Below are positions 24,745 through 52,700 of a stretch of 64,000 nt of DNA, piece by piece. How positions within the stretch are numbered: position 1 is the first letter of the stretch; every line of letters begins with the position of its first letter. The stretch is from contig NC_092676.1 in NCBI RefSeq assembly GCF_964355755.1, forward strand, positions 21,000,288 to 21,064,287. The letters run 5' to 3'. Position numbers and translations under genes: made by a program. The notes under the pieces were generated by a model, which was given only the letters and a program-made list of their open reading frames with translations, was not told where the DNA came from and ran no database searches. Source of the DNA: Antedon mediterranea. Its lineage: Eukaryota; Echinodermata; Crinoidea; Comatulida; Antedonidae.

Positions 24745-27179
24745 ATGTTGATGCCAAAGAAAAACCGTGTTGCCATTTATGAACACTTATTCAAAGAAGG
24801 TGTAATGGTAGCCAAGAAAGACTATACTCTGGCAAAACACCCAGAACTAGATGTTCCTAACCTTCAAGTTATCAAAGCCTTGGGTGTAAGTATTTTGATT
24901 TATTGCAAAGAAGATTGTACATGCTCACTTTTTTCTAATAATACAGAAAAATATATTATTATTTTATTCTTTTTATTAATTAAATATTTAACACTAATGT
25001 GTGTCAATGTTTAAAAAAATAGAAGCTGGTTGGTTTATCGGTTGGCTTTCTGTTTTTATTACCTGAAACATATTTTATAAATTCTAAAACCTTTTGTTTT
25101 TTATTTTGTGCTATTTTTTAGGCACTATAGTATCAGAACAACACATTTTTTTAGAGGAGGGAGTGGGATATCCCTACACTTTGTTGTGTCTGAAATGTGT
25201 CTGCTTAATAGAGTTCTACAGTTTTTTAAACTTATATGTATATATTACGCTCCTCTACTTTCTGCTATATTCATATATAGTATGTTGTTTTGTAGAGCAC
25301 TCTTCATTTCGAAACGGTGCATTTTTGTTGTGAATACTATTAGCATTTTGCAAAGCACGCTCGTTGAGCTTGTGCACTCTTTGTGTTCATAATCAGTGTA
25401 CCATGTCCCGCATACCTGGCTCAGCCTATATATTGTGCCAGTTCTGCGGTACATTTCATTTAGAAACCTGAGCTGCACTGACGAGATCTAATAAGATCGA
25501 AACAGTACTGTCTCCAGTATATATATATATAATGTATATTTGAATGTAAATATATAATGTATATTTGAATGTAAATTTATTGTAGTCTTTGAAGTCCCGT
25601 GGCTATGTAAAAGAACAGTTTGCTTGGAGACATTACTATTGGTATCTGTCAAATGAAGGTATCCAGTACTTGAGAGACTTCTTGCACCTTCCACCAGAAA
25701 TTGTGCCATCAACCCTCAAACGACAGGCAAGACCAGAGCAGTCAAGACCACGACCCAAAAGTATGTCAATTTCTGTTATACTGTAGATGAAAAATGATAA
25801 TTTATTTTATGAGGGTGGTCCATCCAGCTGAAGCTGACCCTAACAAAATATATCATGACAAGACAACAATTAAATGGAATGGTTGAAACATGCATTGGTT
25901 TTATCTGATTTAAAATAGCAACAGTTGATTCGCAATTTTCATTGAGGACCTGCCCCGGCAACAGACAATGCTGCTAATTGCAAAATACGCTCTATGTGAT
26001 TGGCAGCATTGCGTTAGCATGGGCAACCACATTGGATAACCGTTTGATCTCATAGCCAATGAGTCAATCCTTGTATTATTTTGTCCTTTTTGTTTTTAAT
26101 TGTAGGTTTTGACAACCGTGGTCCAAGTTCAGCCGAAGCAGGCCAGAGAGATAGTTACCGAAGAGGACCAGGTGAGTGATTCTAAATATAGTAGCATTGC
26201 AATATACAGTAGACCCTTCATTTTAAGTACTGTACGAGACCAAAAGACCAGGCCTACCCTCACATCTAGCTAGGCCTAGCCTACTATAAAAGTATATGCA
26301 GGCTGTGTGATATTTTATAAAGAAAAAATCAATGCTCTTGTATTTTCTATCAATAAAAACAGTCCTGCTGTAGGGGGCACTGCACAGCCATGGCTTATGG
26401 TCTGCTGTTTATAAATTGCACCCTCAGTATAAGAAAATTAAATTACTAAAAATGATGATGTCATCGATCATTTTATGTGTATGTGTAGGGGGTTACCCCG
26501 GTGAACTGGTTCACACAATAGCCCCTGTATCAGGAGGATTACCACCTATCTGATAGGACAGTGATTAATTTACTATTGGTAATCCTTGGCCACATTGCCT
26601 AAAGACATAAAATAAATATGTGTATGTATAATCTATGGAACATTAAATCAGGGTACGTAAAACAAAGCTTCTACTGTACTTATTGTTGCTTGGAATACAA
26701 GAATATGACTTTCCAGACATAATTTTGCAAGAAAGGAAATAGTGGACATTTAGAAATATGTCAATTAATACAATAACTAATGTAACCTTTTTTACAGCTG
26801 GTGGCGGACCAGACAAGAAGGGTGAAGCCGGTGCCGGAGCCTCTCCTGCATTTGAATTTGTACGTAAATGTTTTTATTTATTGCTGTATACTAAAATTAT
26901 TAGTAGTAGCCCCAGCCCCTTCTACATTTTGAAACATCCAAATTTAATTTTACAATTTTAAGACCCTGGTGTGTGTCTCTCCACTCCTCCATATTCAAAC
27001 ATTTTAAAATGTAATCTGAATTTGAAACTATGCCTTGGTTCTAAACCAACAATGTGCTAAGGAAGGATAATTTATAATTGTTTTCTCACTCTACAACTCT
27101 GTCGACAATATCTTGAATGTTTTTGCTTTTTTTATTTCAGAAAGGAGGATATGGGCGTGGTCGACCAACACAGCAGTAG
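24745..27179 (+). CDS. RPS10: 40S ribosomal protein S10 (eS10)
   Basis: Five coding exons: 24745-24885, 25586-25760, 26106-26171, 26798-26859, 27141-27179 (TAG); 483 nt, 160 residues. This is close to the roughly 165 residues of vertebrate S10. The start [57 protein letters not shown] and the basic Gly-rich tail [10 protein letters not shown] are diagnostic of the family. Most of the protein is the winged-helix S10_plectin domain, followed by a disordered Arg/Gly tail. It is a component of the small ribosomal subunit head. The ATG follows a 3' splice site by one base (TTTTAG-G-ATG), so the 5' UTR is mostly in an upstream exon. Intron 2 (24886-25585) carries a hammerhead-ribozyme repeat in the sense orientation. 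Confidence 0.96.
25239..25517 (+). mobile_element. Retrozyme-like repeat, one unit, in the RPS10 intron
   Basis: About 279 bp from TATATTACGCTCCTC to the hammerhead, clearly the same repeat as the tandem copies at 37252-37703 (shared ACGCTCCTCTACTTTCTGCT, GCAAAGCACGCTCGTTGAGC, TGTACCATGTCCCGCATACC). It encodes no protein. Both sides are TA-rich, and a (TA)n run starts directly after it. Non-autonomous, probably RNA-mediated mobility is inferred from the ribozyme, by analogy with metazoan retrozymes. Confidence 0.75.
25473..25517 (+). ncRNA. Type I hammerhead ribozyme, intron copy
   Basis: Core CTGACGA at 25478-25484. Stem II is GATCT/AGATC around loop AATA (25485-25498), then GAAA at 25499-25502. 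Stem III is a minimal ACA/TGT hairpin with loop GTAC. The predicted cleavage is after C25512. Stem I is CTGCA (25473-25477) against TCCAG (25513-25517), with one C-C mismatch where the other copies have TGCAG. All invariant core bases are present; the stem I change may lower activity. The cleavage site is 73 nt upstream of the exon at 25586. Confidence 0.78.
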
Positions 27180-30828: not shown

Positions 30829-33800
30829 ATGACGCCTTTAAAAATCGTTTACTTCTGTTTACTTGCAATCAGTATGGTCAACGGAGTGTGTAGTATGCCT
30901 ACAGGTCACAATTCTGGATCGGACATCCTAAATATCATTGGACCAAGAAATAATTGTTCATCTGTGAGACTGTGCGATCTTCATCATTATGAACTAGCTT
31001 TAACAGCGACTGAAATCAACAGGTTTCCTAAAGAGCCGATTTCATGTTATTTAAATAAAAATCAACAAATTAGGTAAGATTATTATAATATTAGTAAAAG
31101 GTTTTGCCCTACTCTGACGTTTGTACTTTATACTGGCTTGCTAGTGATCATGATGTCGTGGGTTCGAGCCGGACCCGAGAATTTTTGCGCAAGTAGGTCT
31201 ACTCTCAATGTACTTAGTAGTACAAATTAGAGACTGACGAAATGGTACTTCACAGTATCTACAAACAATTACAGTTATTATATTATAGAGATATTGATAA
31301 TCATAATAATATTGATGATGATTGATAATGATATGCTTATTATACATGTTTCGATTAATGAGGAATATCTTCATAGAGATTGATTTTTAAAAATAAACTA
31401 AACTACCTCAATATTGTATCATATTTTTACAGATACTACATTTGTCGCAAGTGCTCTGTGTGTGAACCGTTATCTGCTGTTCTTCTTGAATGTGGAAGAA
31501 AACACGATACAATCTGCTCCAATCATTCAAAAGGTAATTTCAAAACATAATTTTGTACTAAATAATTCTTACCTTAGCATTAAAATTCTGAAGTTGCTTT
31601 GATAGACTCGAGTTCTGGTCGCTAGGGCGGCCGGATGTGATGGAGGAGAGGAAGCTTCTTTAGTGGAAAAAAAACCACTATAAATTCACTTTTAATTTAT
31701 CGCATTTTAGAAAGCAGTGGGAGGGGAAGACGGTTCGTCGGCTACGAGCCTTCGTCATTCCCCTCAAATATTCATATTATGCACATATAACCTAATCAAT
31801 GTTTAATACCATAGAATATATTGTTAATTAAAGATGTATTGTCCCCCAAAAACATGACAAATTAGGAATAATTAAATTTGAATAGGTTATTTTGTAAAAA
31901 AAGTTTTCACTTATAAAACGACAAAATAAATGGCAAAATTCAACCAAACAATTATTGGCTGGCCAATTTTAATGTTTTTTGCGTTAAATTATATAGATAC
32001 ATTTTTTGGTCAAAGTGAATAACTATTCAAATGGCATATTCAACAAAAATTGTTTAAAGAATTATTTTTTTCAGGTGGAACAATACATTATTAAATATTG
32101 TTTTTTTAACAGTTGAGTCAAGAGGCACCGTTGCATCTTCAATAAAAAGCTTGTCCACATTGACCATCGAAGAAACAATCCCTGTGGATGCAAATACAGA
32201 AAATAAAGATAGTAAACGGTCGCTATATATCATTGTTACTGTTGGTGTAGTCTTTCCAAATGTGATTCTTGTATATTTCTATATCACGCTAAGGAGATGG
32301 TTAGTTATACTTTCTTATTTTTACTTTTATGTTGAAACCTGACATGCGAACGAAAAACAATCACTTTAGTTATAAATCTAACGTAAGCCTATGTATACGC
32401 TATGCAATGGTGGTATAATGCCATACAGACTGGAAAATAATAATGGTATTAAGAAAATATTGTCCAAAACGAAAAGATTTGAACACGAAAACTTTAAAGA
32501 AAATATACTATTAACTGACCGTTCAATGATGCGTACTATATTGCACGCTATGTGAGCCACAATCGTCTAATCAAATCACAGGAATTGTTTAATTACATAA
32601 GTTATAAATTCACATTCTTTTGACAAAATAATAGCTTCTTTCAAACGCGTCATGGATAGGTCTATACTTGATAAATATTTTGTTTACAGTATTATGAATA
32701 TTTAAAATAACTATGATGTAGGCCTACGCAGTAATTTTGAATATCAAATTATTCCTCTTTCAGGAAACGTCTTTTCAAAAGAATTTGTGCAACAGCAAAG
32801 CTTACAAATGAATCCACTGTCAGCGTAATTCCCGCATCGTCTGAAAGAACATCAGTGGGAGTAACCACAACTTGCAATGTGTCTTTAGGAGGCACAGCCA
32901 CTACTCCGATGACTATGATAACAAGCACTAAGAAGACATCATACAATCCATTCTGGCTTGAAATGAAAGCAACCATTGGACCAGAAGGTGGTGTTGTCAG
33001 TGACCCTAGATCTGGCGTGAACCTGATTATTCCACCCGGTGCTATTCCAGAAACTCACCCCAAACAAGAGATTATCGTCCGAGTTGCACTTAAACCATCT
33101 AATTTTGGGCTTAACCAGCAAAAGGATTTAACTCTGCTAGGACCAGTGGTTGAGTGTTTGTCGCCTGGTTTAGCAGAATTCAACTCTAATGTCACTTTGG
33201 TGGTGCCACATCGTGCTAAACTCAACCCAGACTGGAAGTTCCAGGTTCTACATTCCGAAGACAAGTACTCGGATCCCGTTTCCAAGTTTCGATGGACAGT
33301 AACAAGTTCTAATCACGATGCGAAACATGGTGTGCACTTTGAGGTTGACGAAAATTTCTTTAGGATCAAAACAAGTCACTTTACAACATACACATGTGCT
33401 GGGAGCTGTTCTAGAAAGGCGCCCTTGAATTTGCAGGTTGTGGTGTATGGGGACTATGTTCATATTGACGGGAGGAAACAAACAGTCGATCTACGGTGTT
33501 ACGTCTGTGATACAATAAAGGATTATTCTCATACATTTCGTGTTAACGAGCGCAATGGTCCTCTGTGTGTACCACGACCAATCAACCATTTCTTTGACAA
33601 AAAGACAAAGAAAATTGAATTGTTTTTTCCAGAAGATGATTTTGGAACAGACTTCCAGTGGACATCTGAGACGTTTAACGATTCTCTTCCGAATTCAAGG
33701 GTAATTATCAATATTGATCAGTCACCATTAACACCGTTATCAGAATAAACATCATCATGATAAACATCATCATGATACACATCAGCATGCTCAACACAAG

Positions 33801-36262: not shown

Positions 36263-36326
36263 CCGCCGTCTTCTCTGTTCATAGTGTTAGTTAATTAAAT
36301 AACACTATGAACAGAGACGACGGCGG
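36263..36326. repeat. Near-perfect 27-bp palindrome
   Basis: The arm CCGCCGTCTTCTCTGTTCAT (36263-36282, continuing AGTGTTA) pairs with the right arm ending GAACAGAGACGACGGCGG at 36326. There is one mismatch over 27 bp and a loop of about 10 nt containing GTTAATTAAA. It marks the junction to the receptor-promoter-like sequence that starts at 36327. Confidence 0.8.
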
Positions 36327-36490
36327 AGTCTGTCCATGATAACATTACATTTTTTGAATGCATTCTTACCGTAATTGTTTACCCTATTTAAAAATAGAAG
36401 TTTTGCCTGTGACGTCATTTATAACAATTGCTTCTCCAGTGAAGTGAATTACGACATTGTCGGGGTTTTCCGTAAGATTTAAATAGATAG
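36327..36490 (+). pseudogene. Relic of a receptor-gene 5' flank
   Basis: AGTCTGTCCATGATAACATT, TGTGACGTCATTTATAACAA, GAAGTGAATTACGACATT and GGGGTTTTCCGTAAGAT are near-copies of 39484-39610. They are diverged relatives of the sequence just upstream of the downstream receptor gene (about 49480-49650: CTGTGATCTCATTTATAATA, AAGTGAATTACAACATTACT). No receptor exon follows. Confidence 0.5.
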
Positions 36491-36729
36491 CAAAATGTTA
36501 GATAGCAAACAATTAGATAGCAAATAATCGGAGAGGGTAGGGAGGGATGGTGCTGAAAGCGAAGCGAAAATCACTTGCCAGAGGGTCAGGTTGCCGCCAA
36601 GAGCGAGATTTACCGAAGCAACGGCGTTCTAGCGTAATTTGAGACCGTTTTAATATATTTTAGAGGCGAGTTTTTAAAGTGCAAAAAATACCTAAGAATA
36701 TTAAAAGTTTGACTGACAGGTAAAAAAAG

Positions 36730-37222
36730 CTACGCCGATGAACGAATTACTAAAAATCGTAAAAAAATCCTCTTATTTTAGGGTAAAGTAGGCCTACGGA
36801 TATTGCGCCTCTTTTCATCCATCAACGAATGTTCTCAGTTTAGAAAATTTGAGCGTATCTCAACATTGAATAATTGACAATAATTTTCAGTGACAAGTAT
36901 TTTTATATAGGCAAAAAGTGTGCATCTTCGACTGGTAGTTGTTGATATCATTTAAGCCAACAAACGCGAAATTATTACTGGTCACTGATCCTACTTTTTA
37001 ACTGAGAGGTATCAAGTGCATTTTGTTTAGTCCGTAGTAATTAGTACAGTCTTTTTGTTTATTTTTAATTCATTTATGTGTAAATTTACTTTGTATGGAC
37101 CAGAGATTCCGAAATAAAAGATTGAATGAATAAAATAAATGAATAACCAAGAGGACGGCATTGTTCATTGTCCTCTTATTGATACCCAATATAATATGGT
37201 TTTACAGATTTTAACATAAAGA
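36730..37222 (+). repeat. Repeat R, truncated copy interrupted by the ribozyme array
   Basis: From GCTACGCCGATGAACGAATT to GGTTTTACAGATTTTAACAT. Fuller copies are at about 39880-40797 (same orientation) and 37809-38640 (inverted). This copy breaks off at about 37222, shortly before the ribozyme array. The repeat contains no protein-coding frame. Confidence 0.65.
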
Positions 37223-37379
37223 TTCATCAATATAACTCTATATATCTTTATATTTTGCAAAGCACGCTCGTTGAGCTTGTGCACTTTTTGTGCTCATAAT
37301 CAATGTACCATGTCCCGCATAACTGGCTCAGCCTATATATTGTGCCAGTTCTGCGGTACATATTATTTCGAAACCTGAA

Positions 37380-37424
37380 CTGCACTGACGAGATCTAATA
37401 ACATCGAAACAGTACTGTCTGCAG
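37380..37424 (+). ncRNA. Type I hammerhead ribozyme, first array copy
   Basis: Core CTGACGA 37385-37391. Stem II is GATCT/ACATC (one C-C mismatch) with loop AATA. GAAA is at 37406-37409. Stem III is ACA/TGT with loop GTAC, and cleavage is predicted after C37419. Stem I is CTGCA (37380-37384) with TGCAG (37420-37424), fully paired. The catalytic core is intact, but stem II is weakened. Confidence 0.8.
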
Positions 37425-37654
37425 ATTGGATATTACGCTCCTCTACTTTCTGCTATATATAGTATTTTGTTTTGTAGAGCACTCTTCAGTTCGAAACGGT
37501 GCATTTTTTGTGTGAATACTATTAGCATTTTGCAAAGCACGCTCGTTGAGCTTGTGCACTCTTTGTGTTCATAATCAGTGTACCATGTCCCGCATACCTG
37601 GCTCAGCCTATATATTGTGCCAGTTCTGCGGTACATTTCATTTCGAAACCTGAG

Positions 37655-37699
37655 CTGCACTGACGAGATCTAATAAGATCGGAACAGTACTGTCTGCAG
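37655..37699 (+). ncRNA. Type I hammerhead ribozyme, second array copy, core mutated
   Basis: Stem I is CTGCA/TGCAG, core CTGACGA 37660-37666, and stem II a perfect GATCT/AGATC. The conserved GAAA has become GGAA (37681-37684), which changes the invariant A13. Stem III ACA/TGT is intact and cleavage would be after C37694. A13 substitution is expected to abolish or strongly reduce cleavage. Confidence 0.78.
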
Positions 37700-37808
37700 A
37701 TTGGATATATATATATATATCGAAACTTCACATAAACCATTTAAACGATTTGTTACGAAAATGACGTTCCAAAACACTATTTTACAATCCTACTTTTAAA
37801 TTGTCCCG

Positions 37809-38640
37809 GCCCCCCGGCTGTCGTGTCTGTAGTGTCGTATTGAAAATTGCTTTGGGAATAATTAGAACCAAAATGCAAAATAAGAATTGTTATTATAATT
37901 ATTTAGGAATTATAGCCATACTCACCTGTGGTGGCGCCAGGTTGGAATAGGTGAGGGAAGGGGGTTGTTGCTAGTACGTGAAGAAATTTTCGTAAATGGT
38001 TCACTACACGGGGTTTCGACGTGCGGAATGCATTTCATACACGTTTAAGATTTATTCATTGAAAATCAAGTTCTTTAATGAGGTAGAGTAACATATGTTA
38101 AAATCTGTAAAACCATATTATATTGGGTATCAATAAGAGGACAATGAACAATGCCGTCCTCTTGGTTATTCATTCATCATTCATTCAATCTTTTATTTCG
38201 GAATCTCTGGTCCATACAAAGTAAATTTACACATAAATGAATTAAAAATAAACAAAAAGACTGTACTAATTACTACTGGACTAAACACAATACACTTGGT
38301 ACCTCTCAGTTAAAAAATGACCAGTTATAATTTCGCGTTTGTTGGCTTAAATGATATCAACAACTACCAGTCAGAGATGCACACTTTTTGCCTATTTAAA
38401 AATACTTTTATCACTGAAAATTATTGTCAATTATTCAATGTTGAGATACGCTCAAATTGTCTAAACTGAGAACATTCGTTGATGGATGAAAAGAGGCGCC
38501 ATATCCGTAGTTCTATACTTTACCCTTTGATAGACTATGTAAGAGGAACGAAATAATCTAATTTTCATTAAAAATGTTTGGGTTTTATTTGTGGGAAATA
38601 TTTGATTTGTTCAGCCAATCACTATGTTAAACAACCTCAT
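37809..38640 (-). repeat. Repeat R, inverted copy (left arm of a long inverted repeat)
   Basis: Read on the minus strand this segment matches 39955-40797 nearly base for base. Shared landmarks are CCCCCCGGCTGTCGTGTCTG, CACCTGTGGTGGCGCCAGG, GAACAATGCCGTCCTCTTGG and GTGGGAAATATTTGATTTG. The arms are about 835 bp and are separated by about 1.3 kb. Confidence 0.8.
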
Positions 38641-38642
38641 TC

Positions 38643-38712
38643 ATTCTAAACCGGGCGGTTTAGAATTAATGTTCTTTGCCTGTTGTGTTTTATATATATA
38701 TATAATATATAC
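38643..38712. repeat. Short repeat box next to a TA tract
   Basis: CATTCTAAACCGGGCGGTTT then AGAATTAATGTTCTTTGCCT, then a TA run. The same box plus TA run occurs at about 62501-62575 in the oxidoreductase gene. It may be the end of an uncharacterised mobile element. Confidence 0.5.
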
Positions 38713-38721
38713 ATATATATA

Positions 38722-38900
38722 AATCCAAAGGCAAATTACTGAAAAAATGGCAATGCTGTGGATATCAGTGACTGGATCTCAATGGAGATACAAAAAAAAA
38801 GCGAAGAGCTAAATCAAAACGATAAAGTAAAAGTTAAAAACAGCCAGAAAAGTTAGCAGAGCTTTCGGGCAACACTAGCCCTCCATCAGTGCAAGTAAAG
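38722..38900. repeat. Interspersed repeat, copy of 29930-30075 with extra tail
   Basis: Shares GATATCAGTGACTGGAT, CTCAATGGAGATACAAA and AAATCAAAACGATAAA with the earlier copy. It continues through AGAGCTTTCGGGCAACACTA and GCCCTCCATCAGTG, a tail that looks like the end of a retroelement. The class was not determined. Confidence 0.5.
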
Positions 38901-39239: not shown

Positions 39240-39620
39240 AGCTGTAAAAGTAGGGATTGTAAGTAGTGTTTTGGAATGTAATTAGTGTTTTGGAATGTAA
39301 TTTTCCTAACAAACAAATCGTTACAAATTAGGTAGTTTACTGGAAGTTTCGAATTACCGACTGCGATAAAGTACACTTTGAAATCCCGAAATTAAACCAG
39401 TGAAGAAATGTTGGACTTAACTATGGCAAACAGCATTTATTTGAAACTTCGAGTTTGCGACTTAAAGAAGGTTGTGCATACTAGAGTCTGTCCATGATAA
39501 CATTACATTTTTTTAATGCATTCTTACCGTAATTGTTTACCCTATTTAAAAATAGAAAACTTGTCCTGTGACGTCATTTATAACATTACGACATTGTCGG
39601 GGTTTTCCGTAAGATCTAAA
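39240..39620 (+). pseudogene. Second relic of a receptor-gene 5' flank
   Basis: It aligns in order with 49217-49660, the 5' flank of the downstream receptor gene: AAAAGTAGG...ATTGTAA, GTGTTTTGGAA, AACAAATCGTT, AGTTTCGA, GAGTTTGC, TGTGACGTCATTTATAA. The downstream part also matches 36327-36490. No receptor exon follows, so it is probably the remnant of a further duplicated copy. Confidence 0.5.
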
Positions 39621-39954
39621 TAGATATCAAAAAATTAGATAGCAAATAAGATAGGAATGCAAGGGCGATATTTACCGAAGCAACGGCGTTCTAGCGTAAT
39701 TTGAGACCGTTTTAATATAATATTTTAGAGGCGAGTTTGTCATTTTTTAAGTGAAAAAAATACCTAAGATTTATCGTGACATTGTTATGTAATAAATATA
39801 AATATTGAAAGTTTGACTTGGTTTAGTGGCCAAGTATTATCAATAATTATTATTCTATAGAATGTTAAGATCAGGTAAAAAAAGCTAAGCCGATGAACGA
39901 ATTACTAAAAATCGTAAAAAAATCCTCTTGTTTTTTCATTGCATTGCACATTGC

Positions 39955-40797
39955 ATGAGGTTGTTTAACATAGTGATTGGCTGAACAAATCAAATATTTC
40001 CCACAAATAAAACCCAAACATTTTTAATGAAAATTAGATTATTTCGTTCCTCTTACATAGTCTATCAAAGGGTAAAGTATAGAACTACGGATATGGCGCC
40101 TCTTTTCATCCATCAACGAATGTTCTCAGTTTAGACAATTTGAGCGTATCTCAACATTGAATAATTGACAATAATTTTCAGTGATCAAAAGTATTTTTAA
40201 ATAGGCAAAAAGTGTGCATCTCTGACTGGTAGTTGTTAATATCATTTAAGCCAACAAACGCGAAATTATAACTGGTCATTTTTTAACTGAGAGGTACCAA
40301 GTGTATTGTGTTTAGTCCAGTAGTAATTAGTACAGTCTTTTTGTTTATTTTTAATTCATTTATGTGTAAATTTACTTTGTATGGACCAGAGATTCCGAAA
40401 TAAAAGATTGAATGAATGATGAATGAATAACCAAGAGGACGGCATTGTTCATTGTCCTCTTATTGATACCCAATATAATATGGTTTTACAGATTTTAACA
40501 TATGTTACTCTACCCCATTAAAGAACTTGATTTTCAATGAATAAATCTTAAACGTGTGTGAAATGCATTCCGCACGTCGAAACCCCGTGTAGTGAACCAT
40601 TTACGAAAATTTCTTCACGTACTAGCAACAACTCCCTTCCCTCACCTATTCCAACCTGGCGCCACCACAGGTGAGTATGGCTATAATTCCTAAATAATTA
40701 TAATAACAATTCTTATTTTGCATTTTGGTTCTAATTATTCCCAAAGCAATTTTCAATACGACACTACAGACACGACAGCCGGGGGGCGATTTTTTTT
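39955..40797 (+). repeat. Repeat R, direct copy (right arm of the long inverted repeat)
   Basis: Inverse partner of 37809-38640. Its right part and the following about 115 bp (40366-40915) are also the inverse partner of 48674-49224 on the far side of the BEL/Pao element. The retrotransposon therefore sits in the spacer of a second inverted repeat. Confidence 0.8.
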
Positions 40798-41877: not shown

Positions 41878-44727
41878 TTAACAGTTTGTATTTTCTAAAA
41901 TCAAGGTTAGTTTATGAATTGGCCTTTCCAAATATGTTGCGCGTTTCAACCGTTTTCCATCATTATCGATATTTGTGTCTGCAACAATTAACCTAACTTT
42001 TCTCACTAGTCCGTCCTCACTTGGCATTAATTCAGATATTCTGGCCAATTTCCAGTCTCCGCGTATCAAATGTTCTTCTTTTAGTAGTACTATGTCTCCT
42101 ATCTCAAGGTTTCGGCGTACTTGGTTCCACTTAGCTCTCGATTGAAGGTTGGTCAAATATTCCTTTTTCCATCTTGACCAAAATTCATTGGCCAGAAACT
42201 GAACTCGACGCCATCTTCTTAATGCATATACGTCTTCCTTGACAAAGAACCCAGGCGGTGGAAAAACGATTTTCGATTTCATTGTGAGTAGCTGGTTTGG
42301 AGTTAAGGCTTCGGGTCCATGTGGATCATTTAGATTTTCGGTTGTTAGAGGTCTACTATTGACGATAGCCATCGTTTCGTACAGGAATGTACGGAGAGAC
42401 GTGCTATCTAATCTTGACTTGTATTGATTAAGAATGGAATAGAGAACGTTACGGATTGTTCTTATTTGTCTTTCCCAAATGCCTCCCATATGACTGGCGG
42501 AAGGAACATTAGAAAAGAAGTTACAGTTTTGATCTGCTAGGAACTTTCGCACCTTATCTTCTTTAATCTCCTTAAAGGCCTTTGTGAGCTCATGTTGTGC
42601 TCCCATAAAGTTACTGCCTTGATCACAACGAAATTGACGAACATTGCCACGTATAGCAATGAAGCATCTAAGAGCGTTGATAAAGGCGTCTGTTGTCATG
42701 TCGTCGAGCATCTCTATATGAATGGCTCTTGATGCCATACATGTGAATAACAATCCATACCTTTTTAATTCTCTTCTTCCCTCCTTAACCAAAAATGGTC
42801 CAAAACAGTCAAACCCAGTATATGTAAACGGAGGGGTTGGTTCCAATCTTTCATTTGGTAAGTTTGCCATTTTTTGGTCTTGATTACGCCCACGTAATTT
42901 TCTGCATTGAACACACTTGTAGATATGGCTTGATACAGCTGAACTTATTCCAACTATCCAAAATCCATTGGATCTAACTGCATTGGTCGTAAAGCCTCTT
43001 CCTTGATGGGCTGTTTTCTCATGGTAGTGTTTAATTATTAAATGTGTTACATGGCTTCTTTTTGGCAATATTGCAGGATGTTTAACACCCATATCTAGAG
43101 AGGTGGCTCGTTTCAGGCGACCACCAACTCGCAGTAATCCGTCAACATCTACGTACGGGTCTAACTTCGCAAGATTGCCTGTGCACTTGGAAGATTGCTT
43201 GTAGAGTTGGTCGATGTCTTTTTTGAAGAACTTATGTTGGACCATTTTGATGATGGTCTTTTCAGCTTCGATTCTGTCTTCTACAGAGGTAATGGTATAA
43301 TGATTTTTGGTTTTTCTTGTTTTGATGAATTTCTTAAGAGCGGCAACTCCTGTAACTGCTCTCTTATAATCGGAAAAACGTTCTACACGATTTAGCAAGC
43401 AATTTTCTTCAGTGGAATTTATCGCAAGCACGCTAGCTTGGTTTACTTCCGGATCGTTGGAAGATACGTCAAATTTTTGATTATTTTCCACTATATTTCC
43501 GCATTTCCAAAGGAGTTTTGGTCCTTGAAACCAGTTGGATGTCTGTAAGTCCTTTGCTCCAAGACCTCTTGAAGCATGGTCGGCTGGATTCTCATTCGTA
43601 GATATGTAGTTCCATTGTTCAGGATTTGTGGTATCTCTAATGCGTTGGACGCGATTAGCTACGTACACATGGAAACGTCTGGCTTCGTTTCTGACATAAC
43701 CAAGTACTACCTTCGAGTCAGTCCAGAAGTAGTGTGCTGAATTTTTATATTCTAGTTCTTGATATAGAATGGTACTGACTTTCGTTGACAACACCGCGGC
43801 TTGTAGCTCTAATCTTGGAATACTAACAACCTTTTTGGGTGCCACTCGGGCCTTTGCCATTATCAGCGCACAGTGAATCTCAGAGAAGTCATTTTCAAGT
43901 CTTATATACGAGCACTGCCCATAACCAGAATTACTTGCGTCGGAAAAGTGATGAAATTCGACCTTTCTTTGTTGGAAATCTTTTGGTTTGAAGCACCTAT
44001 TAATCGTAATGGTGGCAAGCTTTGGAAGGTCTAATCTCCATTTCTCCCATTTTGGACGAAGCTCCTCGGAAAGTTTTTCGTCCCAGTCTGTTCCCTCCTT
44101 GCACACTTCTTGCAGTATTTGCTTACCCTTGAGTGTAAATGGGGCAAGAAGTCCAAGTGGGTCGAAAATTGATGCTACAGTGGATAGAATTCCTCGGCGT
44201 GTCAATGGAGTGTCTTTCATGGTGATTCTAAATTGAAAGTTATCTGACTCGACGCACCATTGTATTCCAAGGGCCCTTTCAACTGGTAAGTCTTCGAATG
44301 ATAGGTCTCGATCTACGGTTCCTTTAGCCTGTTCTGATTTTGGGATGGTAGACATAACGTCTCGTTGGTTGGAAATAAATTTATGTAGTCTAAGTGAGCC
44401 CTTTGCACACAGTTTTCTGGCATCTTCTATTAATTCAACTGCTTCAGGTACAGTTTCTACGCTCTTTAGACCATCGTCTACATAAAAGTTGTTCTTAATG
44501 AAGTTAACTGTCTCTGGTTTGTGTTGTTCGGCAAAGTGTTCCGCCATGTATTTTAGTCCGAAATTAGAGCAACCTGGTGAGGAAGCGGCTCCAAACAAGT
44601 GGACCTTCATTCTGTAATCTATGGGTTGCCTTTCGAGATTTCCATCTTCCCACCACAAGAAGCGTAGATAGTTTCTGTCATTCTGGTTAACATGAAACTG
44701 GTGAAACATCCTCTCTATATCACACAT
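41878..44727 (-). CDS. BEL/Pao pol, RT to integrase part
   Basis: An open stretch of 949 codons in the same frame as the gag part. It is a continuation after a stop codon, and its Met is not a genuine start. In order: RT palm motif A (CDIERMFHQF) and catalytic FYVDDG; RNase H (FSDASNSGYG, WTDSKV, ADHAS); the integrase zinc region with two His (KHYHEKTAHQG) and CVQC; the integrase core with Asp (GFDCFGPF), Asp (CDQGSNF) and Glu (GGIWERQIR); then the Trp-rich C-terminal domain (FWSRWKKEY, GDIVLLKEE). All catalytic acidic residues are visible. Function: reverse transcription and integration of the element. Confidence 0.92.
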   Translation of the reverse strand: MCDIERMFHQFHVNQNDRNYLRFLWWEDGNLERQPIDYRMKVHLFGAASSPGCSNFGLKYMAEHFAEQHKPETVNFIKNNFYVDDGLKSVETVPEAVELIEDARKLCAKGSLRLHKFISNQRDVMSTIPKSEQAKGTVDRDLSFEDLPVERALGIQWCVESDNFQFRITMKDTPLTRRGILSTVASIFDPLGLLAPFTLKGKQILQEVCKEGTDWDEKLSEELRPKWEKWRLDLPKLATITINRCFKPKDFQQRKVEFHHFSDASNSGYGQCSYIRLENDFSEIHCALIMAKARVAPKKVVSIPRLELQAAVLSTKVSTILYQELEYKNSAHYFWTDSKVVLGYVRNEARRFHVYVANRVQRIRDTTNPEQWNYISTNENPADHASRGLGAKDLQTSNWFQGPKLLWKCGNIVENNQKFDVSSNDPEVNQASVLAINSTEENCLLNRVERFSDYKRAVTGVAALKKFIKTRKTKNHYTITSVEDRIEAEKTIIKMVQHKFFKKDIDQLYKQSSKCTGNLAKLDPYVDVDGLLRVGGRLKRATSLDMGVKHPAILPKRSHVTHLIIKHYHEKTAHQGRGFTTNAVRSNGFWIVGISSAVSSHIYKCVQCRKLRGRNQDQKMANLPNERLEPTPPFTYTGFDCFGPFLVKEGRRELKRYGLLFTCMASRAIHIEMLDDMTTDAFINALRCFIAIRGNVRQFRCDQGSNFMGAQHELTKAFKEIKEDKVRKFLADQNCNFFSNVPSASHMGGIWERQIRTIRNVLYSILNQYKSRLDSTSLRTFLYETMAIVNSRPLTTENLNDPHGPEALTPNQLLTMKSKIVFPPPGFFVKEDVYALRRWRRVQFLANEFWSRWKKEYLTNLQSRAKWNQVRRNLEIGDIVLLKEEHLIRGDWKLARISELMPSEDGLVRKVRLIVADTNIDNDGKRLKRATYLERPIHKLTLILENTNC

Positions 44728-44805
44728 TATGGCTATGGGTTCTTGTCTAAATCTGCATAGTACACCTATGAGTGTGTTGTTTAGGTCTGGTCCAGTAAGA
44801 AGATG

Positions 44806-47800
44806 TTAATTCAAGGCTGTACCTTTGTAGTTAGCGGAGCAGTCAAAGACAACACGAATTTTGGTGGGTTTCTTAGGGTGGTAAATTCCGTGATGAGGTA
44901 TGTACCATGCTGGCTCTTTTTGTATTTCATTTGCTGGTACTTTCTCGGCATCTCCATTTTGAAGTATTTCTGTCATAAATTTTTGATAATCTTCAAAGTA
45001 CTTCTCATTCGTCAGGAAACGTCGTTTTAGGTGGTTCAATCGATGCAGTACACAAATTCTGTTATTCGGTAATACTGGCCTCTTTTTAAAGGGTAATGGC
45101 ATTTCGATATGTCGGTCTTCATTGATATGGACTTCCTTTTTTAGAGTATCCATAAACTGCACGTCTTCTTGAGAGAGAACTGTGTCTCTTGTAACTTTCT
45201 CCGTGAAGTCGTACTCCAAGGCTCTTATTGCATCTAATGGAGTAACTATTTCTTTAACAGCTGTTTTTAAGACATAGTGAACTTCTTTGGTTGGTTCCGA
45301 TTTCAAATTAGATTCGTACGTTAAGTGTAGATCGTTTGGAATTTCCTTCACCATTACTCTATGACTGTGACCGATTTTATCTTGAGGAACATAAGATGTC
45401 TCAGCTCCTCCTCCTACCACACTCCAACCCAATTGAGTTTTGATAGCGAATGGTTCATTTCCATTTCCTGAAATATGGTCTATGGGTGCCAGAGCCTGTG
45501 GAACGTTATACCCAATAAGCAACCCTATTTCACAGTTTTGTCTAGATGGTATCTGTTGACTTATCCTTTGTAGATGAGCATAACATCTCGTCTTTTCGGG
45601 TGTAGGAATATGTGATTGGTCAACTGGTATGTATTCTCTAGTATATGCCGTTGGTAGCTGAATTTTTGTTTCTTCAAAGAAACCTCTAATCATTAGGTTG
45701 TTATACTTCTTGCAAGATACGACTTCCCTTTTAGACGTCATCGTAGTCAATCTTAGTGTTGCTGGTTCGCAACTTGCACCAATTTGGTTTGCAGTATCTT
45801 CTAGCACAAAGGTTGTGTCGGATTGTGTGTCTAATAGGGCATATACAAGATGTTCCTTTTCAGGTTTATGTTCATTGGATATCCAGACGGGAACTATCAT
45901 TGAAGACATTGTGTTGTTTGTGTTTCTGCGGACATTTTTGCAGTTTGAAGTCTTTACTGATTTTACCACTTCAGACTTAGCGTCACCATTCGGCCGAGTC
46001 TCGGCGTCAATCTCGTTAGCCTGATCTCTCTCCTTTACATTTGAAGTCTTTACTGATTGTACTACTTCAGACTTAGCGTCAACATTCGGCTGTGTCACGG
46101 CGTCAATCTCGTTAGCCGGATCTCTCTCCTTTACATGGAGACTTGTTGGATGTCTCCTTTGGCAAATTTTACAAATACTTTTCTGGTTACAGTTCCTTGA
46201 CACATGGCCATGTTGTAAGCAGCTGAAACATAGACCATTTTGCTTGATGTATTGCTGTTTTTCGGTATCGGGTTTTCTGGCAAACGCTCTGCAGTCACTT
46301 AGGTGATGGTTATTCATTTTACACATGAAGCATGATGGCATTCCACTGATACTGGTGGCTAGCGTTTGAGATTGGTTTCGATATCTTGAACTTTTTTCTG
46401 TGAATTTTGTTTCATTTTCTGGTATTAAGGTAACAGGATCGCAAACAATTTCAGCTTCGGTCGTCAAAAATGTGGAAAAGTCATTGAATGTTGGATAACT
46501 ACCCTTGATTTGCATAGCGCTCACTGCGTTTCTTCGCCATCTATTCACTAACCAATCTGGTAATTTTTGAAGAATTTTCCGGTTTTCTCTGCTGTCATTA
46601 AGAACTTCCAAGCCTTTCATTTCCTTCATTGCTATGTTGCATTGGTTCAGAAAGTCAGAGAGTCGCCTAAGGCCATTGTAATCTCTTGCTTGAATCCTTG
46701 GCCAGCTGTCTAATTTGTCTCTAAATGCTTCGGAAACTATAAATGGATTTCCATATCTTTTTTCTAAAACTGATTTAGCGTTTTCATAAGCATGTTCACC
46801 TTGTAGCAGAAAGTGTCCACTGACAACTTCCTTTGCTGGGCCTCCTATGTATCTCTTAAGGTAGTGAATTCTGTCTGCCTTAGAAATTCCTTTATTTTCG
46901 ATTAAACATCTAAAGGATGCGTTCCAATCATAGTACTTAAGAGGATCGCCATCAAATATTGGTGGCTCTGGTGCTGGTATGCGGTTCATCCTGAAGGCTG
47001 AAGAAAAGGCTTCTGCTAAAGCGTTTAAGTCTGTGGTACTGCTAGATTGATTTTGAGGCATTGTCGATTGGGCTGTTGTTGCTTGTGTCTGTGTCATTAG
47101 AGGTTGAGGTTTGGTTAGGTTGCGAAACCTTAGTGCATGATCATTTGAGGTTTGGTGTGGGGTGGTCATAATTTCTCCATATCCGTTCTGAATTTCCTGT
47201 TGAATTGCATCAACTCGTGCATTCTCTACAGCTGCAGCTTGTTTAGCCTCTAAAACTTTGAACTCTGCTTCAGCTTTGGCATGTTCTGTTCTTTGCTGTG
47301 CTTCCCGCCTTATTTCTTCAAGCCTTGCTTCTGCTTTCTTAATTTCCATTTCAGCTTCCTTTGCTGTAAGGTCTGCTTTCTGTTTAGCCATTTTTTCAGC
47401 AAATTGAGCAGTTTTGTTGGCTGCAGCAGCATTCGCCACAGCTTGAGCTTTAATGCTAACAATAGATCGACATGAACTCCTTGATGCTGCAGATTTTGAG
47501 GCTTGACACTCCAGGGCTAATGCATGTGCCCTATCCATAGCGCTTGTTATACTAGCTTGGATGGAGTTGGTAATGGTGAGATATATGTTCTCATTCTCCA
47601 GGTGATCTTCGCGATGAATACCATCTCTATCTTGTGCATACAATTTATTCAATACGCACCAAGCATCACTATATTCCTTTAATGCAGCTTTAGCTTTGCA
47701 TAATGCAGTTTGTATCTCAAATTCGTCGCTTGGAACATCTTCTAGTTCACTTGATGCTTCTTGAGCCTTTCTCTGAGTTTGAGTCAACAGTTTTACTTCA

Positions 47801-47913
47801 GTAGCAATGCTAATTGACAGGGCCTTAGCTGTAGGGCGTCTCTCACTCTGTTCTCTTAGATTCATTGAGTTTTCGTCAGCTAAGTTTTCACTGTTACCGT
47901 AGGCGTCCATCAT
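44806..47913 (-). CDS. BEL/Pao gag-protease and start of RT
   Basis: 1035 codons. Roughly 1-520 is a coiled-coil-rich Gag with Ala/Glu/Lys repeats. Zinc knuckles follow near 528 (CFMCKMNNHHLSDC) and 559 (CFSCLQHGHVSRNC). The protease region has ALLDTQSDTTF near 690, where a Gln replaces the usual Gly of the D-[ST]-G triad. RT begins before the TAA at 44806-44808. The first ATG (47911-47913) lies inside the 5' LTR, 22 nt before its end; the next Met, in NSMNLRE, is an alternative start. The TAA may be a recent nonsense mutation or a readthrough site. Confidence 0.9.
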   Translation of the reverse strand: MMDAYGNSENLADENSMNLREQSERRPTAKALSISIATEVKLLTQTQRKAQEASSELEDVPSDEFEIQTALCKAKAALKEYSDAWCVLNKLYAQDRDGIHREDHLENENIYLTITNSIQASITSAMDRAHALALECQASKSAASRSSCRSIVSIKAQAVANAAAANKTAQFAEKMAKQKADLTAKEAEMEIKKAEARLEEIRREAQQRTEHAKAEAEFKVLEAKQAAAVENARVDAIQQEIQNGYGEIMTTPHQTSNDHALRFRNLTKPQPLMTQTQATTAQSTMPQNQSSSTTDLNALAEAFSSAFRMNRIPAPEPPIFDGDPLKYYDWNASFRCLIENKGISKADRIHYLKRYIGGPAKEVVSGHFLLQGEHAYENAKSVLEKRYGNPFIVSEAFRDKLDSWPRIQARDYNGLRRLSDFLNQCNIAMKEMKGLEVLNDSRENRKILQKLPDWLVNRWRRNAVSAMQIKGSYPTFNDFSTFLTTEAEIVCDPVTLIPENETKFTEKSSRYRNQSQTLATSISGMPSCFMCKMNNHHLSDCRAFARKPDTEKQQYIKQNGLCFSCLQHGHVSRNCNQKSICKICQRRHPTSLHVKERDPANEIDAVTQPNVDAKSEVVQSVKTSNVKERDQANEIDAETRPNGDAKSEVVKSVKTSNCKNVRRNTNNTMSSMIVPVWISNEHKPEKEHLVYALLDTQSDTTFVLEDTANQIGASCEPATLRLTTMTSKREVVSCKKYNNLMIRGFFEETKIQLPTAYTREYIPVDQSHIPTPEKTRCYAHLQRISQQIPSRQNCEIGLLIGYNVPQALAPIDHISGNGNEPFAIKTQLGWSVVGGGAETSYVPQDKIGHSHRVMVKEIPNDLHLTYESNLKSEPTKEVHYVLKTAVKEIVTPLDAIRALEYDFTEKVTRDTVLSQEDVQFMDTLKKEVHINEDRHIEMPLPFKKRPVLPNNRICVLHRLNHLKRRFLTNEKYFEDYQKFMTEILQNGDAEKVPANEIQKEPAWYIPHHGIYHPKKPTKIRVVFDCSANYKGTALN

Positions 47914-49712: not shown

Positions 49713-52700
49713 ATGATGTCTTTCAAAATCAGTTGCGTCTGTTTACTTGTAATCTGTATGGGAAATAGATGCATGTCTAAACGTTACGACATCTCTAACT
49801 TAAGAGAAACATGTTCAACGACAAGCCAATGCGGTCCTCATCAATATGAACTAGGCTTAACAGAGACTGAAATCAACAAGTTTGCGCCGAAAGAGGCCAA
49901 GACATTTCCATGTCATTTAAATCGGAATCAACAAATCAGGTAATTTAGAAGAATTATCAAATTTATTTTATTGTATTGATGATTTTGTTATATTGTATTT
50001 ATTCGTTTGCATAGCACCTCGCCACGAACAGAGCGAGAGAACAGCTGATATACTACTTGATAAAAAGAAAATGCATACGTTTAAATAGAGGCACCAACAA
50101 CAGGAAGCATGTCCCAGATGCATGAGGAAAAGGCCACCAACTTTCCTTTACATAATAGTTTTGTTACAAAGAATAACAGTAGATAATATAATATTAATAT
50201 ACATAAAATGTATAATTTTAAGAAAAAAAAATGTTGAGTATATACTGTAATATATAAATTACCTCTAATGATTAAACCATTAGTTACGGCATTTTAGTTT
50301 ACACCATGCTGCATCACATTTCATTTAAATATTTTTTTCTTTATTTGTTTTAATCCAACAATACAAATTTCATAATAACATTTTCATAAATTACTACCGG
50401 TAATGGCAAGAAAAGGAGGAGGAATTTAAGGATTTTAATCTCTTCCCCCCGCCCCACTTTTTTTAATCGAGAGTAATTGTTTAATGACATGGAATGGAAC
50501 ACCTACTCTGAAAAACATAAATACTTCAATTAATATGCGAGTTTATTTTATCGTTTATTGCAGATACTATATTTGTCACCCGTGTTCTGTATGTGAACCA
50601 CCATTTACAGTTCTTCTTGAATGTGGAAGAAAACACGACACAGTATGCTACCCCAATCATTCAAAAGGTTATTAATTTTACCATTTGTTCTAATTTGATG
50701 CAAACACTCAACATATATATTCAACAAAAAATATGATAATAAATAGGACATAACCCAAGTAATTTTACCAATGAGAAGCGTGATAGCTCTTTTGCGTTCA
50801 TTTTCATGAGAACTTGGTTAAAACGTGGTTCCCACTAGGACGCAACGCAGCGACGTATCGACGCAAAGTGTTGTATTGCGTAATCACAAGTGGGAACCGA
50901 CGACGCAATAGTGCTGCAAACATCGCAGGTTTGATTTCACGCAGGCAGGGGCATCCAAACACAATTATTGGAAGGGAATTTTTTTATTTTGCGTAGATTG
51001 CGTTACGTTGCGTCGCTAGTGGGAACCAAGCTTAAGAAAAGCCCAGCCAAGAGAAGTATGCAAACGAATTAAATTGTTACGATGATCCGCCCTGATAATG
51101 ATATGAGCAGCTCTGTTCTGCATCTTTTGAAGCTGATCGGACAGACCCTTACCACAATTTCGCAAACTAAATCACAATAATTAACGATTTGTAAAGTAAA
51201 TTGAGTTTGGTTGTCAATCTTAATCAATCTCCATCTACCGCATTGTTTACCAAAATAAGTTTTTCTTTTTAACAGTTCAGCCGAGCTACATACCTAACCC
51301 TTCAACAAACGTGTCCCCAAAAACCATATTATATAGACAGCGTTTGCAAATAACTGCAGCCATGGATATACCGATCAATGAAGATAGTGAAAGTAATAAT
51401 AGAATAAAATGGCGGTTGTGGATGATTATTACTCTTGGTATAATTATTTGCGTTAATGTGGCGTTGGTTATCATAGTGAGGAAACGGTAAGTGTATGACA
51501 TTTAAAAAAAAAAAAAATTAATCCTTAAATGTATTATTCTTTAAGCGTGGTTCCCACTAGCGACGCAACGCAAGGACGTAACGCAACGTAAGTGAATTGA
51601 CCAATCACAAGCGATGGCTTATTCGCATGTGATGTGTCTATAACTTCGCTTGTCATTGGTTAAAATGCTTGTTTGTTTGTTTGTTTTTATTTTTTGCTCA
51701 TATAAAAATCAACAGTGGTACAGAAAATATATATACATCAAAAGTCGCAGACTTAACAAACAACAAAATCAGAACAAAGACAACAACAAAAAACGAGTAG
51801 GAGCAAAAGATAACCCTCTAAACCCGGAGGTTTGCGTTGCGTTTCGTCCTTACGTTACGTTCTAGTGGGAACCAAGCTTTAAAGCGTGGTTTCCACTAGA
51901 ACGCAACGCAGCGATGTATCGACGCAAAGTGCTGTATTGCGTAATCACAAGTGGGAACCGAGACGCAATATAGTGCTGAAAACATCGCAGGTTTGATTTC
52001 ACGCAGGCGGGGGCAAACACAATGATTTTTACGTTGCATAGATTGCGTTACGTTGCGTCTCTAGTGAGAACCAAGCTTAATGAACGGTGTTTTTAAACGC
52101 TGTTCATTAACAGATAATCAACACGTAAACAAGGACACTCAATAGCTGCTGTAACTGAAAAAATACCTGCGAAAGTGCACACAACCATTAATTTGAATAC
52201 ACTATATTATTACATTTCAGGAGTAGACGTCCTTCCAAAAGAACTTTCAGAAATGAATCAACGGTCAACGTAATTCCCGCATCATCTGAACAAACAGCCA
52301 TAGGAGTAGACATACTCACAAACTGTAATATATCTTTAAGCACAACCACTCCGATGACTATGATAACAAGCACTAAACAGACATCATACGACCCATTCTG
52401 GCTGGAAATTAAAGCAACCATTGGACCAGAAGGCGGTGTTTTATGTGACTCCAGATCTAGTGTAAGCTTAATTGTACCACCCGGGTCTATTCCAGAAACT
52501 CACCCCAAACAAGAGATTATCGTCCGAGTTGCACTTAAACCATCTAATTTTGGGCTTAACCAGCAAAAGTATTTAACTCTGCTAGGACCAGTGGTTGAAT
52601 GTTTGTCGCCTGGTTTAGCAGAATTCAACTCGAATGTCACTTTGGTGGTGCCACATCGTGCTAAACTCAACCCCGACTGGAAGTTCCAGGTTCTACATTC

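What the first reader, a model, noticed from the sequence alone, without database searches (positions are those of the whole stretch)
37252..37703. Tandem hammerhead-ribozyme repeat (retrozyme-like) with a 275-nt unit
Both units carry CTGAnGA, a 5-bp stem II with AATA loop, a GAAA-type box and a minimal stem III palindrome (ACAGTACTGT) before the cleavage C, all at hammerhead spacing. The two predicted cleavage sites are exactly one repeat apart, so transcription of the array could release a 275-nt RNA able to circularise. Small metazoan retrozymes are known to have this organisation; this family appears not to be annotated from sequence features alone.
Basis: partly seen in the sequence, partly recalled or inferred. 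Interest (0 to 1): 0.88.

Follow-up and report, generated by a model that had tools for sequence, protein, structure and literature searches.

The report
Ribozyme-bearing jumping RNA element (retrozyme)
A short repeat carrying a self-cutting RNA motif belongs to a family of at least 110 copies scattered through an animal-like genome; how the copies end suggests that they were pasted in by the reverse transcriptase of another mobile element, a Penelope-like element, which could answer an open question about how such circular-RNA elements move.

Summary
The 275-nt repeat and both hammerhead motifs are real. They belong to a dispersed family: 110 genome-wide exact matches to the ribozyme core, against 0 for the reversed pattern. 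This is a new, species-specific member of a known kind, the metazoan non-LTR retrozyme (type I hammerhead, short palindromic stem III, 41% GC, no ORF).

Unit 2 has GGAA (A13G, a change private to this copy), and unit 1 has a C·C mismatch in stem II. Release of a 275-nt circle from this particular locus is therefore doubtful.

The new part is how the copies are inserted. Of 98 elements, 71 end exactly ...TGCAGATTGGA, 11 nt past the cleavage site; 87 are followed by TA. Their 5' ends are scattered and a few have flush 7-15 bp target duplications. A linear monomer cut at that site cannot template such an end, so the template was circular or uncleaved.

A GIY-YIG Penelope-like element (PLE) of the same genome ends in the same TTGGA at the same TA-rich targets. 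Its ends lie within 100 bp of 14 of 49 retrozymes. The literature named PLEs as candidate mobilisers but reported no diagnostic motif; this gives one. Cleavage, circles and mobilisation remain untested.

The parts
37252..37705 (+). Retrozyme insertion, 1.6 units (443 nt to the second cleavage site plus 11 nt), 5'-truncated
   Evidence: Boundaries from alignment to the repeated unit; family in genome
37420..37694 (+). One complete 275-nt unit, from predicted cleavage site to predicted cleavage site
   Evidence: circular fold -72.8 kcal/mol, z -2.86
37380..37424 (+). Hammerhead 1: stem I 37380-37384/37420-37424, CTGACGA 37385-37391, stem II 37392-37405 with C-C mismatch, GAAA 37406-37409, stem III palindrome, cleavage after 37419
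   Evidence: Sequence; RF02275 22.4 bits; fold
37655..37699 (+). Hammerhead 2: CTGACGA 37660-37666, stem II 37667-37680 (5 bp, AATA loop), GGAA 37681-37684 (A13G), cleavage after 37694
   Evidence: Sequence; RF02275 29.2 bits; A13G found in no other aligned copy
37695..37705 (+). Fixed 3' terminus TGCAGATTGGA, 11 nt downstream of the cleavage site
   Evidence: 71 of 98 elements have this exact 11-mer, 87 of 98 followed by TA
37706..37720 (+). TA tract at the 3' junction, read as target DNA
   Evidence: Flush target duplications starting with TA at other copies
25242..25531 (+). Second copy of the family in the window, about one unit, hammerhead core intact (CTGACGA at 25478), 3' stem I strand altered to TCCAG
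38695..38892 (-). 3'-terminal piece of a Penelope-like element (repeat 'X'), 90% identical; its own stem reads CTGATGG in place of CTGATGA; ends TTTGGA|TTTATATA
   Evidence: X lies downstream of a GIY-YIG ORF in L079 and L080
29916..30057 (-). Older, degraded copy of the same Penelope-like 3' end (83%)

Best explanation
This is a copy of a non-autonomous metazoan retrozyme. A source copy is transcribed; its type I hammerheads cut the RNA into 275-nt units, and the units are probably closed into circles by a host ligase (inferred). The reverse transcriptase and GIY-YIG endonuclease of a Penelope-like element then nick TA-rich DNA and begin copying the RNA at a fixed internal site, UUGGA, 11 nt past the ribozyme cleavage site. 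Copying runs across the ribozyme and around the unit until it stops, giving insertions with one fixed 3' end, scattered 5' ends, and occasionally more than one unit. Shown here: motif, family, fixed end, truncation, target, and the shared end with a local PLE. Inferred: cleavage, circularity, and the identity of the enzyme.
For: 110 intact-core copies against 0 in the reversed control. In 98 distinct elements the 3' end is TGCAGATTGGA in 71 and is followed by TA in 87; lengths to the cleavage site run from 35 to 455 nt, 9 exceed one unit, and the unit seams examined run straight on without an inserted TA tract. Flanks are TA-rich: TA/AT dinucleotide fraction 0.49 on the 5' side and 0.70 on the 3' side, background 0.22. 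Flush target duplications: 5 against 0.93 in shuffles, p 0.003 (one of the five is itself mostly TA repeat). A PLE 3' end (X) ends TTTGGA|TTTATATA in 26 of 31 copies and lies downstream of a GIY-YIG ORF. X lies within 100 bp of 14 of 49 retrozymes: 16 hits in 0-100 bp, about one per 100 bp further out. An 857-aa ORF with RT and GIY-YIG matches exists in the genome. Internal initiation, AT-rich targets and tails are established for PLEs (PMC11167929, PMC3846280).
Against: No expression, cleavage or circle data. TTGGA is only five shared bases (chance about 1 in 1000), and TA tracts are common targets, so a LINE with similar taste is not excluded. In the PLE studied in vitro, ribozyme cleavage was not needed and unprocessed RNA was the substrate (PMC11167929), so the template may have been an uncleaved linear precursor rather than a circle. 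The ribozyme is not significantly more conserved than the rest of the unit (p 0.20). Only a few target duplications can be resolved in TA repeats. Both hammerheads at this locus are damaged. Most copies are shorter than one unit.
Confidence: 0.66

Rival explanations
1. SINE-like element: a linear, uncleaved transcript is copied by a LINE or PLE reverse transcriptase, and the hammerhead plays no part in mobility.
For: 5' truncation with a fixed 3' end is the normal SINE/LINE pattern. Every analysed copy reads through the cleavage site. The hammerhead is not more conserved than the rest. In vitro the PLE used unprocessed RNA (PMC11167929).
Against: The exact 275-nt period with seamless unit joins in longer copies needs tandem masters or a circle. 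The core is intact in at least 110 copies. No separate tail sequence or RNA polymerase III promoter was identified (the latter was not searched for systematically).
Confidence: 0.22
2. Ordinary satellite DNA with a relic hammerhead, spread by recombination or unequal crossing over rather than by RNA.
For: Tandem arrangement at some loci; several copies clustered on C10 at 13.7-15.0 Mb.
Against: Most copies are single, truncated, dispersed over 11 large contigs and sit at unrelated TA sites with a common 3' end and some target duplications.
Confidence: 0.05
3. Chance resemblance to a hammerhead.
For: No Rfam gathering-score hit; the two window copies are imperfect.
Against: RF02275 E 9e-5 genome-wide for intact copies and none in 14 control genomes; all core positions present in the family.
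Confidence: 0.03

Closest known systems
Metazoan non-LTR retrozymes (Cervera and de la Pena 2020, PMC7229834)
   Same: Type I hammerhead in a 150-450 bp repeat, GC below 50%, no LTR, PBS, PPT or ORF found, short stem III capped by a tetraloop, target duplications longer than 4 bp when present, stable predicted circle
   Different: Own sequence and 275-nt unit; mostly single 5'-truncated copies rather than long arrays; a fixed 3' terminus and TA targets are documented here, whereas those authors report no motif that points to the mobilising element (PMC7761336)
Penelope-like elements with minimal hammerheads (PMC11167929, PMC3846280)
   Same: Same insertion pattern: internal start of reverse transcription downstream of a hammerhead, AT-rich target, 5' truncation, target duplications near 10 bp; shares TTGGA terminus with a local PLE
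   Different: The retrozyme encodes no protein and has no other sequence match to the PLE pieces tested
Rfam RF02275 Hammerhead_HH9
   Same: Best Rfam match over full model length, same three-stem layout
   Different: 22-34 bits, below the gathering score of 52
Plant LTR retrozymes (PMC4918200)
   Same: Non-autonomous hammerhead element thought to move through circular RNA
   Different: Plant ones carry type III hammerheads in LTRs with PBS and PPT, 4-bp duplications

Membership tests
Metazoan non-LTR retrozyme | Type I hammerhead with intact core | tested here: met
   Met by the family: 110 intact cores, RF02275 E 9e-5. The window copies are each damaged: A13G, stem II mismatch
Metazoan non-LTR retrozyme | Short repeat unit of 150-450 bp, tandem in at least some copies | tested here: met
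   275-nt unit; 9 of 98 elements exceed one unit
Metazoan non-LTR retrozyme | GC below 50%, no protein-coding ORF | tested here: met
   41% GC; no ORF of 100 aa or more overlaps 37252-37705
Metazoan non-LTR retrozyme | No LTR, PBS or PPT | not tested
   Not scanned for specifically; the junction maps show no paired terminal repeats
Metazoan non-LTR retrozyme | Target duplications longer than 4 bp | tested here: met
   7, 10, 11 and 15 bp at L086, L100, L109, L013; 5 against 0.93 in shuffles, p 0.003; unresolvable in TA repeats elsewhere
Metazoan non-LTR retrozyme | Self-cleavage and circular RNA in the animal | not testable with these tools
   Needs RNA
Rfam hammerhead family RF02275 | Score at or above gathering cut-off | tested here: not met
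   22.4-34.4 bits against 52; filed as related, not as a member
Penelope-like element | Encodes RT and GIY-YIG endonuclease | tested here: not met
   The retrozyme has no ORF; the separate X element does have a GIY-YIG ORF upstream
Mobilised by a PLE (works like) | Fixed internal 3' end downstream of hammerhead, AT-rich target, 5' truncation, end shared with a local PLE | tested here: met

The most novel reading that the evidence does not exclude
Animal retrozyme RNAs, circular or uncleaved, are copied into the genome by Penelope-like reverse transcriptases that start at a fixed internal UUGGA site just past the ribozyme cleavage point and prime on TA-rich DNA, so the genomic 3' end of each copy records that the RNA was joined across its own cleavage site.
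Probability: 0.5. Interest if true: 0.72.

Novelty: new member of a known kind. Interest (0 to 1): 0.52.

Why it matters
Animal retrozymes make abundant small circular RNAs, but what moves them is unknown; published work proposed Penelope-like elements on the ground of co-occurrence and said that no motif in the repeats helps to decide (PMC7229834, PMC7761336). The fixed 3' end, TA targets and the shared TTGGA terminus give a concrete, genome-readable signature that can be checked in corals, mussels and axolotl and tested with a purified PLE protein. The position of the end past the cleavage site also gives a genomic argument that the copied RNA was not the cut linear monomer.

Tried and rejected
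Rfam at gathering score: no hammerhead. Type I model RF00163 over the genome: only one credible sub-threshold site elsewhere, none in this family. Rfam on the PLE 3' end: nothing, so its hammerhead is assigned by motif only. Purifying selection on the ribozyme: not significant. Covariation: not attempted, since copies are about 95% identical and stem changes look like decay. Sequence similarity between the retrozyme unit and PLE pieces beyond the terminus: none. Search for a PLE Pfam model PF26215: not in library. Naming the host from assembly size and chromosome number in papers: failed.

Full report
What is in the window. The repeat is real: 37252-37433 and 37527-37708 are 95% identical at a spacing of 275. 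The order in each unit is stem I strand CTGCA, CTGACGA, stem II, the GAAA box, the palindrome ACAGTACTGT (read as a 3-bp stem III with a GUAC loop), then C and the stem I partner TGCAG. Predicted cleavage is after 37419 and after 37694. Rfam in E-value mode aligns the whole Hammerhead_HH9 model to both (29.2 and 22.4 bits); none reaches a gathering score. Two details in the finding are wrong for this copy. Unit 2 has GGAA, that is G at the conserved position A13, where mutations are reported to lower cleavage 10-100 fold (PMC4075628). Unit 1 has a C·C mismatch inside stem II, and its predicted fold does not form stem II. The array holds 1.6 units. Release of a 275-nt circle from this locus is therefore doubtful.

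The family. The window lies in a 354-Mb eukaryotic genome. The exact core pattern occurs 110 times (58 forward, 52 reverse) and the reversed control pattern 0 times. RF02275 reaches 34.4 bits (E 9e-5) on intact copies and matches nothing in 14 control genomes. A second copy lies in this window at 25242-25531, with an intact core. Copies are about 95% identical, so the family is young; the ribozyme columns are not significantly less variable than the rest (p 0.20) and A13G is private to this copy. The unit has 41% GC and no ORF of 100 aa or more. A circular unit is predicted to fold at -72.8 kcal/mol, z -2.86 against dinucleotide shuffles. These are the features of metazoan non-LTR retrozymes (PMC7229834).

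How copies are inserted. I mapped both ends of 98 distinct elements. The 3' end is nearly constant: 71 read TGCAGATTGGA, 11 nt past the cleavage site, and in 87 the next two bases are TA. The 5' end is scattered from 35 to 455 nt before the last cleavage site, and 9 elements exceed one unit; because the pattern needs an intact core, shorter remnants are not counted. In the dimers examined the unit seam runs on as GGATATTACGCTCC without an inserted TA tract. Flanks are TA-rich (dinucleotide fraction 0.49 and 0.70, background 0.22). Where the target is not a plain TA repeat, flush duplications of 7 to 15 bp can be read (L086, L100, L109, L013); the shuffle test gives 5 against 0.93, p 0.003, of which one, L002, is mostly TA repeat. 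This is the signature of target-primed reverse transcription with 5' truncation. Because the start point lies past the cleavage site and the sequence across that site is continuous, a linear monomer cut there cannot have been the template; it was either a closed circle or uncleaved RNA. The data do not separate these two.

The likely partner. Many retrozymes abut a repeat, X. X starts near CTGATGAAGGGC...GCCCGAAAGC, which fits a minimal PLE-type hammerhead by motif (Rfam does not recognise it), and ends TTTGGA|TTTATATA in 26 of 31 copies. At two loci X lies downstream of a GIY-YIG endonuclease reading frame, which makes it the 3' end of a Penelope-like element. X and the retrozyme therefore share the terminal TTGGA and the TA-rich target. 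Among 49 retrozymes with kilobase flanks, 14 have X within 100 bp: 16 hits in the first 100 bp against about one per 100 bp further out. The simplest reading is that both use the same target sites. The genome also holds a different PLE family with an 857-aa ORF bearing RVT_1 and GIY-YIG matches. Biochemistry of a lizard PLE shows AT-rich cleavage and internal initiation downstream of its hammerhead, explaining the genomic tail (PMC11167929); rotifer PLEs have 9-10 bp duplications and favour AT-rich targets (PMC3846280). The same in vitro work found that ribozyme cleavage was not needed, which is the main argument for the SINE-like rival.

Limits. No RNA or biochemical evidence was available. 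Shared TTGGA is short (chance about 1 in 1000) and LINE tails in this genome were not surveyed. The host could not be named. Copy counts are lower bounds.

Verdict. A new, species-specific member of a known kind, with one damaged copy at the reported place, and an insertion signature that makes a published open question testable.

Noticed in passing
   Followed up: yes
window 36326-37218, 37809-38643 (inverted), 39484-40787: Three copies of one roughly 0.9-1.3 kb segment, two direct and one inverted (92-100% identical), with the retrozyme in the gap between the first two.
   Followed up: partly
window 41878-47913 (-): Bel/Pao-type retrotransposon ORFs: Peptidase_A17, integrase, DUF1759; a 96-bp tandem duplication lies inside at 45944-46136.
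   Followed up: partly
window 32855-33748 and 52354-53202: Two similar ZU5-domain ORFs, each followed by a 15-bp minisatellite of about 22 copies: a segmental duplication.
   Followed up: partly
L016 616-1008: Two Penelope-like 3' ends head to head with their 3' ends outward, as expected if both DNA strands are cut and extended.
   Followed up: no
L130 495-3068: An apparently uninterrupted 857-aa PLE ORF with RT and GIY-YIG matches, from a different PLE family than X; an imperfect hammerhead-like stretch follows at about 3085-3118.
   Followed up: partly
G000 C10:10407900-10407945 (-): Sub-threshold Hammerhead_1 match (29.4 bits, E 0.005) that is not in the retrozyme site list; possibly another hammerhead family.
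   Followed up: no
5' junctions of full-length copies (L010, L015, L026, L047): Several near-unit-length copies start at (GG)ATATTACGCTCC, the same point as the 3' end, often next to a TA tract: possibly one full turn resolved by microhomology.
   Followed up: partly
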